Part shown: positions 3,631-63,640 of the stretch, one piece after another | How the letters are laid out: the number at the start of each line of letters is the position of its first letter | How positions within the stretch are numbered: position 1 is the stretch's first letter | NCBI RefSeq assembly: GCF_900156865.1 | Contig: NZ_LT732529.1 | Span: 2,027,804 to 2,091,803 of the forward strand | Source: Litchfieldia sinesaloumensis | Lineage (GTDB): Bacteria; Bacillota; Bacilli; Bacillales; Bacillaceae_L | Direction: 5' to 3' | DNA: 64,000 nt | Position numbers and translations under genes: made by a program | The notes under the pieces: generated by a model | What the model saw: the letters and a program-made list of their open reading frames with translations, nothing else | Told to the model about the DNA's origin: nothing | The model's database searches: none

Positions 3631-3753
3631 AATGCGTAAGCGCCTTGATCAGTCCCGACAAGCATAAGACGATACGGCCAGAAGGTTGCTCTTTGACCTT
3701 CTTGACGGATTGGCTTATGACCTCGAGGGGCTAGGCGCTGGAGCTAGACGTAG
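3631..3753 (+). repeat. Structured dispersed repeat, copy A (short form)
   Basis: About 123 bp starting AATGCGTAAGCGCC and ending CTAGGCGCTGGAGCTAGACGTAG. It has outer arms AGCGCC/GGCGCT, a middle helix CATAAG/CTTATG and an inner hairpin AGAAGGT/ACCTTCT. It lacks the first hairpin pair of the long form. It lies between two leftward lipoprotein genes and matches the copies at 5368, 7048, 36572, 53250, 61921 and 63529. Confidence 0.85.
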
Positions 3754-5367: not shown

Positions 5368-5487
5368 TGTCTAGCTCCAAGCGCCATCGGCTCGAGGTCA
5401 CAAGCCAATCACTTCTGAAGGCAAAGTACGCCTTCTATCAGTGCTTTTCTTGTGCTTGTCGCCGATAAGCTGGCGCCTTGCGCTTTT
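5368..5487 (-). repeat. Structured dispersed repeat, copy B (reverse orientation)
   Basis: About 120 bp in reverse orientation. In element orientation it has outer arms GGCGCC and ATCGGC matched by GCCGAT and GGCGC, a CACAAG/CTTGTG helix and an inner GAAGGC/GCCTTC hairpin. The inner arm differs from other copies but stays complementary. The element ends 4 bases from the moaA stop codon (5492-5494). Confidence 0.85.
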
Positions 5488-5491
5488 CAAA

Positions 5492-7042: not shown

Positions 7043-7047
7043 TACCA

Positions 7048-7234
7048 AATGCGAAAGCGCCTCTAAGGAGGATCATCGACTAAAGACTGCCACGTCCTGT
7101 GGTAAACGTCGATGTCAGCACATCCCTGTGCAAGTCTGACCAGCACAAGACGAGGTGGCTAGAAGGTTGCTCTTTAACCTTCTTGACAGATTGGCTTGTG
7201 ACCTCGAAGGGCTAGGCGCTAGAGCTGGACGTAA
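7048..7234 (+). repeat. Structured dispersed repeat, copy C (long form)
   Basis: 187 bp beginning AATGCGAAAGCGCC and ending GGGCTAGGCGCTAGAGCTGGAC. Paired arms are AGCGCC/GGCGCT (outer), CATCGAC/GTCGATG enclosing CCAC/GTGG, GCACA/TGTGC, CACAAG/CTTGTG, and AGAAGGTT/AACCTTCT. It starts 6 bases after the stop of the 6839 gene and lies between convergent genes. Confidence 0.88.
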
Positions 7235-12053: not shown

Positions 12054-12092
12054 ACACTTCACTCCTCTTTTGATGAAGTTCAAAAAGTGCGG

Positions 12093-12200
12093 TGAATATG
12101 ACACTTCGAATTTCTACGTTGGCTTGCTTCTCCGTTCCTCACGTATTAACTACATACGCTCCGGTACTCGAAGCTGTGCCGCCTTGAACTTCTTGGTCCT
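12093..12200. repeat. Possible second intergenic repeat family, copy 1
   Basis: A stretch richer in G+C than its surroundings, with the pattern TACGTTGGCTTGCT ... TACGCTCCGGTACTCGAAGC and then GCCGCC. A weakly similar stretch occurs at 15590-15705. It forms part of the 490-bp gap upstream of comGA. Confidence 0.35.
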
Positions 12201-12322
12201 CTTCATCCTCCTTTTTGAACTCTCATTAATATTTTTTTCTCTTGCAGGTAACATATTTCAACAAATATCTACAAATCCCTCTTTTTTTGAGAAATTATTT
12301 TGTGAACATTTTTTGAACAATG

Positions 12323-36571: not shown

Positions 36572-36666
36572 AAAAGCTCAAGCATCTTGAAAGAGGAGCA
36601 TCGACTAACTACTCCCACGTCCTGTGGCAAACGTCGATGTCGGCACTTCCTGCAAGTCCGATAAAC
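36572..36666 (+). repeat. Structured dispersed repeat, copy D (5' half only)
   Basis: Contains the CATCGAC/GTCGATG helix enclosing CCAC-GTCC-TGTGG and the reduced GCA/TGC hairpin, then stops at GTCCGATAAAC, where the sodA terminator begins. The 3' half of the element, including the GGCGCT arm, is missing. Confidence 0.75.
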
Positions 36667-36671
36667 AAAAA

Positions 36672-53249: not shown

Positions 53250-53429
53250 AATGCGCAAGCGCCTTTAGGTCGAACGTCTACTAAAACTTGCCACGTCCTG
53301 TGGCAAACATGACGTCAGCACATCCTGTGCAAGTCCGACAAGCATAAGAAAAGCCGGCGAGAAGGATGCATTTTATCCTTCTTGACGGATCGGCTAGACC
53401 CGAGAGGGGCTAGGCGCTGGAGCTGGACT
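53250..53429 (+). repeat. Structured dispersed repeat, copy E (long form)
   Basis: 180 bp starting AATGCGCAAGCGCC and ending GGCGCTGGAGCTGGAC. Arms: AGCGCC/GGCGCT, ACGTC/GACGT around GCCAC/GTGGC, GCACA/TGTGC, and AGAAGGAT/ATCCTTCT, where both strands of the inner stem differ from the GGTT/AACC of other copies yet still pair. It ends 13 bases from the sigA stop. Confidence 0.88.
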
Positions 53430-61895: not shown

Positions 61896-61920
61896 TTATT
61901 GGCACCTCCAAAATTATAAA

Positions 61921-62097
61921 GCGATAGCGCCTAGCCGTTGAACGTCTACTGAGTACTGCCACGTCCTGTGGCAAACGTAGACGTCAGCACATCCTGTGCA
62001 AGTCCGACAAGCACAAGACGATACAGCAAGAAGGTTGCTCTTTAACCTTCTTGATGGATTGGCTTGTGACCTCGAGGGGCTAGGCGCTGAAGCTGGA
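61921..62097 (+). repeat. Structured dispersed repeat, copy F (long form), inside the glyQS leader
   Basis: 177 bp starting GCGATAGCGCCTAG and ending GGCTAGGCGCTGAAGCTGGA. Arms: AGCGCC/GGCGCT, ACGTCTAC/GTAGACGT around GCCAC/GTGGC, GCACA/TGTGC, CACAAG/CTTGTG and AAGAAGGTT/AACCTTCTT. It lies 23 bp downstream of the T-box terminator and 25 bp before the glyQ ATG, so it is transcribed (as its complement) in every readthrough mRNA. Confidence 0.9.
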
Positions 62098-63393: not shown

Positions 63394-63528
63394 AGTAACC
63401 CCACCTTTCTGTTTTTTAAAACTAGCAAAGACGATTCCAATATCATTCACTTGTAAGAATATCTTGACCGAAAACCCTAAAAAACATGTTACATAAATTT
63501 TGCTAATCCACGTATTTTTTTCTTATCT

Positions 63529-63640
63529 AGGTCAAGGTGATGTCGGCTCGGGTCACAATCCATTTACTTCTGAAGTAAAAAGCTTCATCTGTCAGCTTTT
63601 GTCTGTGCTTTTCACCGAGAGTCCGGGCACCTTACGCTTT
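63529..63640 (-). repeat. Structured dispersed repeat, copy G (reverse, diverged)
   Basis: About 112 bp aligning with copy B (GGCTCG-GGTCACAA-CC, TCTGAAG, TGTGCTTTTCACCGA, CACCTTACGCTTTT). The inner hairpin is GAAG/CTTC in element orientation. It ends 4 bases from the era stop codon, the same spacing as copy B to moaA. More diverged and probably older. Confidence 0.7.

What the first reader, a model, noticed from the sequence alone, without database searches (positions are those of the whole stretch)
7048..7234. Seven-copy intergenic repeat with compensatory base changes in its stems
Copies lie at 3631 (+), 5368 (-), 7048 (+), 36572 (+, half), 53250 (+), 61921 (+) and 63529 (-). Seen directly: the same order of paired segments, with arms that change together. 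One helix is ACGTCTAC/GTAGACGT at 61921 but CATCGAC/GTCGATG at 7048 and 36572. Another is CACAAG/CTTGTG at 7048 and 61921 but CATAAG/CTTATG at 3631. The inner hairpin is GGTT/AACC, GGAT/ATCC or GGC/GCC in different copies. Such covariation implies selection on, or copying of, a folded structure (RNA or single-stranded DNA), not just drift of a dead repeat. Similar GC-rich intergenic repeats are familiar in Bacillaceae genomes, but I know of no assigned function. Long (177-187 bp) and short (about 120 bp) forms differ by the presence of the first hairpin pair.
Basis: partly seen in the sequence, partly recalled or inferred. Interest (0 to 1): 0.75.

Follow-up and report, generated by a model that had tools for sequence, protein, structure and literature searches.

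The report
Mobile DNA hairpins filed as RNA
The repeated element in this Bacillaceae genome is a small mobile DNA element, and its longer form carries a second, even smaller hairpin module that databases list as an RNA family but that behaves like a piece of DNA hopping between hairpins of other repeats.

Summary
In detail: seven related intergenic copies whose arms change together. It is two nested things. The short form (A1) inserts cleanly: beside rpoD one relative has it, another lacks it (128 nt). The long form is A1 plus Rfam RF01690 'Bacillaceae-1 RNA'. That module (B1) sits in at least five different repeat families and in rRNA operons, at several positions, in both orientations. One species carries a clean 58-nt insertion where its relative has the empty repeat. 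In one genus copy number runs from at least 69 to none found. B1 stems covary almost only Watson-Crick to Watson-Crick: on Rfam's strand G-T 15, A-C 49, Watson-Crick 3354; a riboswitch control gives 38, 1 and 753. Orthologous copies at one locus decay. I conclude that B1 is a mobile DNA hairpin module, not a conserved RNA of Rfam's strand. The mobilising enzyme is unknown; IS200/RAYT, IS110 and reverse transcriptases are each missing from some B1-rich genomes. A published CsrA-binding proposal for the opposite strand stays open.

The parts
3631..3749 (+). A1 element, short form without B1
5369..5488 (-). A1 element, short form (GAAAAGCGCAAGGCGCC subtype)
7047..7230 (+). A1 element, long form (A1 with B1)
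7064..7132 (+). B1 module (RF01690, 58.0 bits) nested in the A1 at 7047
36572..36670 (+). truncated A1 with B1; the right half of A1 is missing. Orthologous site beside a superoxide dismutase gene: A1 without B1 in G001, A1 with B1 in G002
36589..36652 (+). B1 module (RF01690, 46.6 bits)
53250..53428 (+). A1 long form downstream of rpoD; orthologous site holds A1 short in G001 and no A1 in G002-G004
53265..53331 (+). B1 module (RF01690, 45.5 bits)
61918..62097 (+). A1 long form upstream of glyQ; orthologous site holds A1 short in G002, a related element without B1 in G003, the same with a B1 type II insertion in G004, nothing in G001
61933..62000 (+). B1 module (RF01690, 60.2 bits)
63526..63640 (-). 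degenerate A1-like copy, no B1
   Evidence: read directly; not among the matches

Best explanation
The repeat is a nest of non-autonomous mobile DNA elements. A1 (about 120-128 nt) is an intergenic element that inserts without loss of target bases. The extra hairpin pair of the long form is B1, an independent module (a 56-nt core in its type II form; about 65 nt in type I) that has inserted many times into A1 and into other hairpin repeats. Inferred mechanism: an enzyme supplied in trans recognises the module as a folded single strand (paired arms free to vary, unpaired CTAA and RTCCT nearly fixed) and pastes it into exposed single-stranded DNA, often in hairpin regions. Selection on the fold acts only when a copy moves, so the arms covary between active lineages while resident copies decay. 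Shown: nesting, several insertion sites, both orientations, clean filled and empty sites, patchy copy number, Watson-Crick-only covariation of B1, decay at one orthologous site. Inferred: the single-stranded intermediate and the enzyme.
For: Clean insertions between species: A1, 128 nt, G001 against G003, with one letter of ambiguity and no target letter lost; B1 type II, 58 nt, G004 against G003. Type II B1: 22 copies found, core 56 nt in 21 and 55 in one; 21 of 22 have G on both sides and 9 of 22 GG on both sides; 8 of 22 match an empty site with one GG (core ends were set by the search pattern). Same hosts with and without B1 in A, B, C and D elements, with different arms lost in different lineages. 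Opposite orientations in one slot of one genome (L041 against L043-L045, L047-L049, L078, L079). B1 nested in B1 (L127, L130, L163, L164); another insert in B1's RTCC^TGT loop (L028, L093, L111, L136, L177). Patchiness: G016 at least 69, none found in G010, G012, G014 of the same genus; 102 of 199 genomes of the order have a match. Wobble test. Decay. Neighbour orientation without clear bias: of 156 copies 35 same/same, 48 opposite/opposite, 32 convergent, 19 divergent, 22 at locus edges (48 against 35 gives p = 0.19).
Against: No mobilising enzyme and no autonomous copy was found. In type I pairs the empty site usually has some 5-13 letters that the filled one lacks, when B1 is taken as 68 nt (output cut; these bounds were mine), which fits imprecise events or later deletion. 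GG flanks could be module ends and not a target duplication. Sequence comparison cannot tell single-stranded DNA from opposite-strand RNA: A-C excess on Rfam's strand equals G-U excess on the other. By distinct helices the excess is 24 to 13, p = 0.10. The decay test rests on one locus in four species. The A1 stems, on a poor alignment, do not show the depletion of G-T.
Confidence: 0.68

Rival explanations
1. Opposite-strand RNA: the reverse complement of B1 is a CsrA-binding RNA (two hairpins with GGA in the loop), spread as mobile copies that act as CsrA decoys.
For: Proposed in print for the reverse complement of RF01690, and the discoverers were not confident of the strand (PMC4333381, passages read). 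A-C exceeds G-T on Rfam's strand, so wobble is on the other strand. csrA is found in 58 of 60 genomes, own included.
Against: The three rRNA-linked copies checked carry Rfam's strand in sense (L002, L058, L059). Orientation to genes shows no clear bias. Orthologous copies beside rpoD lose loop and arms. csrA is as common in genomes without B1, and one genome with 2 B1 matches has no csrA match (G049). Wobble on that strand (49 against 3354 Watson-Crick) is still rarer than in the riboswitch control (38 against 753).
Confidence: 0.17
2. A functional RNA of the Rfam strand, for example in rRNA processing; the intergenic copies are its dead duplicates.
For: RF01690 was found as a candidate RNA (PMC2864571, one table passage). 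B1 directly abuts the 16S start in two loci of G058 and lies in the 16S-23S spacer in the own genome, in sense; a B. subtilis atlas reports 8 newly annotated copies (PMC8208703, one passage).
Against: G-T rarer than A-C, the reverse of the control. No match in 97 of 199 genomes of the order (stricter filters). Of 30 own-genome copies with about 1.5 kb on each side, only L002 has an rRNA match.
Confidence: 0.06
3. No dedicated enzyme: hairpins spread by replication template switching at stalled hairpins, with GG as microhomology.
For: Type I insertions go with loss of a few letters or of one hairpin arm. No tested transposase family is in every B1-rich genome. Arm copying would give Watson-Crick-only covariation.
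Against: Fixed core length of type II and clean insertions of A1 and B1 between species; conserved unpaired letters; runs of copies with equal scores in G047, nearly identical where read.
Confidence: 0.2
4. REP-like elements moved by a RAYT or IS200-type Y1 transposase, since lost in some genomes.
For: Paired hairpins with conserved short tags; Y1 matches in 52 of 60 genomes, own included.
Against: No Y1 match in G003 (at least 69 B1), G008 (13) or G058 (3); only a weak one in G023 (66 B1, many with equal scores); Y1 present in G010, G012, G014, where no B1 was found.
Confidence: 0.1

Closest known systems
Rfam RF01690 Bacillaceae-1
   Same: The B1 module is this family; the four window copies score 45.5-60.2 bits
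   Different: Here it is a mobile module nested in several repeats, with wobble statistics against RNA of the listed strand
bcr1-bcr3 repeats of the Bacillus cereus group (MITE-like)
   Same: Short structured intergenic mobile repeats of Bacillus; movement linked to a site-specific-recombination-like process at TTTAT (PMC6542083, passages); host family D here also ends in TTTAT-like letters
   Different: The A1 insertion has no TTTAT ends; family D matched no B. cereus group plasmid in PLSDB; nesting of one module in several families does not appear in the passages I read
REP elements (GTAG- or CGTC-tagged palindromes)
   Same: Small palindromic high-copy repeats; the CGTC class has no dedicated transposase (PMC3733652, passages); B1 type II hairpins are followed by CGTC
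   Different: A longer, two-hairpin unit inserted inside other repeats; tag orientation and tail were not matched; no RAYT link
ERIC-like repeats with internal insertions (recalled, no call)
   Same: Small repeats carrying insertions at set positions
   Different: Not compared here

Membership tests
Rfam RF01690 Bacillaceae-1 | covariance model score over the gathering score | tested here: met
   4 window copies; 36 of 37 matches listed in the own genome
Rfam RF01690 Bacillaceae-1 | an RNA of the listed strand with wobble-tolerant pairing | tested here: not met
   G-T 15, A-C 49, WC 3354, other 30; control G-U 38, A-C 1, WC 753, other 18
RAYT-mobilised REP | Y1 transposase in genomes with many copies | tested here: not met
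   no match in G003, G008, G058
RAYT-mobilised REP | GTAG tag at the hairpin foot | tested here: not met
   conserved letters are CTAA/CTAG and CGTC
MITE | no coding capacity, many copies, patchy | tested here: met
MITE | terminal inverted repeats and target duplication | tested here: inconclusive
   type II: CCGAC..GTCGG or a 2-bp GG duplication; A1: at most one ambiguous letter
MITE | transposase of a related autonomous element | tested here: inconclusive
   no split copy with a gene inside among the fetched loci; Y1, IS110 and RVT_1 each missing from some B1-rich genomes; other families not tested
CsrA-binding sRNA (reverse complement) | GGA in hairpin loops | tested here: met
   RTCCT loops read AGGAY on the other strand; published match
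CsrA-binding sRNA (reverse complement) | that strand is transcribed and binds CsrA | not testable with these tools
   indirect signs against:
bcr1 group | TTTAT at the ends | tested here: not met
   the A1 insertion lies between GTAAA and TGAAAAT

The most novel reading that the evidence does not exclude
Bacillaceae carry an undescribed transposition system that moves hairpins as folded single strands into the hairpins of other repeats, building nested hairpins from interchangeable modules of roughly 56-128 nt; an Rfam RNA family is one of its modules, and some modules may also act as mobile decoys for CsrA.
Probability: 0.3. Interest if true: 0.82.

Novelty: new variant of a known kind. Interest (0 to 1): 0.62.

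Why it matters
A family filed as a structured RNA (named in papers on RNA tools and in a B. subtilis atlas: listings, passages) looks like a very small mobile DNA module. The wobble test (G-T against A-C) is a cheap general check that could sort other Rfam families into RNA and mobile DNA, and into the right strand. The nested sites give a ready system for finding an enzyme that inserts hairpins into hairpins, and the published CsrA idea becomes testable with a clear strand prediction.

Tried and rejected
RNA of the Rfam strand: rejected on wobble counts. Y1/RAYT, IS110 and RVT_1 as the common mobiliser: none is found in every B1-rich genome (IS110 no match in G000, G005, G030, G047, G048, G051; RVT_1 no match in G001, G006, G007, G025, G048, G051; Y1 no match in G003, G008, G058). 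Autonomous version split by a gene: 19 left halves found in the loci then held, several of them chance matches, none paired with a right half within 3.5 kb. Plasmid relatives: family D hit 2 of 72,556 records, neither of the B. cereus group; a Peribacillus A1 with two B1 hit none. Wobble count on the A1 host stems was set aside because the alignment misplaced the inner hairpin (WC 382, G-T 48, A-C 23, other 15); at face value it does not share B1's pattern. csrA presence does not discriminate. Of my paper searches only PMC4333381 held Bacillaceae-1 together with transposition and repeat, and its passages do not call it mobile. That family D is bcr1 is a recalled resemblance and is not claimed. 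That Bacillaceae-1 lies near rRNA operons is recalled; I scanned 30 own-genome loci and two of G058.

Full report
What is there. The genus is probably Fredinandcohnia: a contig of the same-genus genome G008 has the length (296,104) of a named F. quinoae contig. Four of the copies contain an Rfam RF01690 'Bacillaceae-1 RNA' match. I call the short form A1 and the RF01690 module B1; the long form is A1 with B1 inside. The own genome has 37 listed B1 matches (150 of 393 candidates scored) and 29 matches to A1, several partial.

B1 is not part of A1. Of the own-genome copies whose surroundings I read (30 loci), some lie in A1 and others in different repeats, and one (L002) between 16S and 23S rRNA; none of the other 29 loci has an rRNA match. 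Over all records then held, B1 lies in family A (two subtypes with the same ends), B (..GCCTCCGGCGGATGCC..AATACGCCAAGGCGCATTTGAT), C (GTTCAAAAAGGAGGA..ACTTTTTGAAC) and D (CCCGCATTAACGGGCAGTAA..GAAGTTTCACTTTAT), and in further repeats of Alkalibacillus and Halobacillus. I did not test whether these families share ancestry. In the terminal hairpin of B the left arm is lost in one lineage (L032, L052) and the right arm in another (L005, L034, L038, L073 and others), and a different site is used in L031, L036 and L065; copies of B without B1 in that hairpin are in L003, L031, L065 and L094. In D it sits either beside or at the tip of the second hairpin, and at both in L075 (in L112 and L181 with a truncated or degenerate second one). 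In G047 the same slot of family A2 holds B1 in opposite orientations (L041 against L043-L045, L047-L049, L078, L079). Nesting goes further: D in B (L036), A1 in A2 (L110), A1 in A1 (L113, L139), B1 in B1 (L127, L130, L163, L164), and a third mini-module in B1's RTCC^TGT loop (L028, L093, L111, L136, L177).

Clean insertions. Beside rpoD (gene named) G003 has no A1; G001 has A1 without B1, 128 extra letters, with one letter of ambiguity and no target letter lost; the window genome has A1 with B1 at the same place. Upstream of glyQ G002 has A1 without B1, G003 a related element without B1, and G004 that element with a 58-nt B1 inserted at CTGG^AGACTCC; G001 has nothing there. Beside a superoxide dismutase gene (best NCBIfam score below its cut-off) G001 has an A1 without B1, G002 one with B1, and the window genome a truncated one with B1. 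In long A1 copies the orphan GGGGCT arm remains while its partner is gone, so I read short as ancestral (inference). The type II form of B1 has a core of 56 nt in 21 of 22 copies and 55 in one; 21 of 22 have G on both sides and 9 of 22 GG on both sides; 13 of 22 gave at least one empty-site candidate at up to 4 mismatches in 24 letters, 8 of them with a single GG. The ends were set by my search pattern. In type I pairs the empty site usually has 5-13 letters that the filled one lacks (output cut; module taken as 68 nt).

Distribution. 33 of 60 genomes (own included) and 102 of 199 genomes of the order have a B1 match (both runs use stricter filters, lose weak matches and cap the count per genome). 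Within one genus G016 has at least 69, and none was found in G010, G012 and G014; G047 has runs of copies with equal scores. Of 156 copies, 22 lie at locus edges; the rest show 35 same/same, 48 opposite/opposite, 32 convergent and 19 divergent neighbours; 14 of 156 fall in an open frame of a naive caller.

What the covariation means. In 121 distinct sequences 95.1% of cells pair and 16 of 18 pairs show changes on both sides; none of 500 shuffles reaches this. But the changes are almost only between Watson-Crick pairs. Over 233 distinct sequences (two searches of 100 loci each) and 15 interior pairs, counts on Rfam's strand are WC 3354, G-T 15, A-C 49, other 30. I left out the outermost pair of P1 (WC 155, A-C 36, G-T 1, other 38) and the two loop-closing pairs, which have many G-T cells (179 and 55). 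SAM riboswitches of 12 genomes (30 sequences of 146 matches) give WC 753, G-U 38, A-C 1, other 18; the G-U difference to B1 (121-row set: WC 1836, G-T 6, A-C 42, other 38) has Fisher p = 7e-15, or 3e-8 without the one riboswitch pair with most G-U. Cells are not independent: by distinct helices with one mismatch A-C is 24 and G-T 13, p = 0.10; for the first hairpin alone 19 and 7, p = 0.03. So the fold is not kept as an RNA of Rfam's strand. It may be kept as single-stranded DNA, as the opposite strand, or by copying of one arm from the other. If the left-out loop-closing pairs are real pairs of Rfam's strand, their G-T cells would count the other way; I take them as loop (RTCCT) because the letters there are conserved as single bases. 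The A1 host stems, counted on a poor alignment, do not show the same depletion (WC 382, G-T 48, A-C 23), so the conclusion is for B1 only.

Decay in place. A lone B1 beside rpoD is shared by G001-G004. Of 18 model pairs, 2 (G001), 4 (G002), 5 (G003) and 5 (G004) are not standard, gaps included; with letters on both sides it is 14 of 70, and without the two loop-closing pairs 11 of 64, with 2 T-G cells. The same stem pairs in the wider set are non-standard in 80 of 1922 cells. Loops have changed and G+C is 0.39 (copies: 0.41-0.66). I see no compensated change there. This is what a mobile element does once resident, and not what a gene-like RNA does. It is one locus, and the wider set favours well-scoring copies.

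Mechanism. The anatomy (variable arms, nearly fixed unpaired CTAA and RTCCT, fixed core in type II, insertion in hairpin regions) points to recognition of a folded strand by an enzyme acting in trans. I could not find it. Y1 (IS200/RAYT), IS110 and RVT_1 families are each missing from some B1-rich genomes. Template switching without an enzyme remains possible, above all for type I.

Known work. Weinberg et al. list Bacillaceae-1 as an RNA, probably without cis-regulatory role (PMC2864571; one table passage). PMC4333381 matches its reverse complement to CsrA-binding sites and reports that the discoverers were not confident of the strand (passages). The wobble counts here fit that strand, but the rRNA-linked copies (L002, L058, L059) carry the other strand in sense and csrA is nearly universal (58 of 60), so they neither prove nor exclude the idea. 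BSGatlas reports 8 newly annotated copies in B. subtilis (PMC8208703; one passage). bcr1-bcr3 of B. cereus are called MITE-like, and 84 of 165 and 62 of 155 bcr copies in two strains were found in mRNA (PMC3446304, passages; PMC6542083, passages). In the held library I found no paper that treats Bacillaceae-1 as mobile DNA.

Verdict. A real and strong observation, re-read: nested mobile DNA hairpins, one of them an Rfam RNA family. Small palindromic mobile repeats are a known kind; nesting of one hairpin module through several families and the loss of RNA status make it a new variant. The mover is the open question.

Noticed in passing
window about 12070-12220 (-): A copy of host repeat family C (GTTCAAAAAGGAGGA..ACTTTTTGAAC), without B1.
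   Followed up: partly
L028, L030, L093, L111, L123, L136, L177: A further mini-module (TCCCAAAAGC..GCTTTTGGTCGTGCGATG..CTTCCTTG and variants) sits inside B1's RTCC^TGT loop in several records, and in L123 also in the right end of A1.
   Followed up: partly
L058:1022-1088, L059:1044-1110: In G058, whose three B1 matches have equal scores, the two copies read directly abut the 5' end of 16S rRNA, in sense.
   Followed up: partly
L002:1501-1567: B1 lies between 16S and 23S rRNA of one rRNA operon of the own genome; no other of the 30 own-genome loci read has an rRNA match.
   Followed up: yes
L127, L130, L163, L164: B1 inserted in the first loop of B1 in Amphibacillus cookii (L127, L130) and in two records whose names I did not see.
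   Followed up: no
L081, L096, L147: Another GC-rich hairpin repeat (GGGCACGGCTCGAGCCTCCTCGG..) of Alkalibacillus: empty copies in L081 and L096, one with B1 in L147.
   Followed up: no
L030:1046-1277: An SR1 sRNA match lies next to a B1 copy of the own genome.
   Followed up: no
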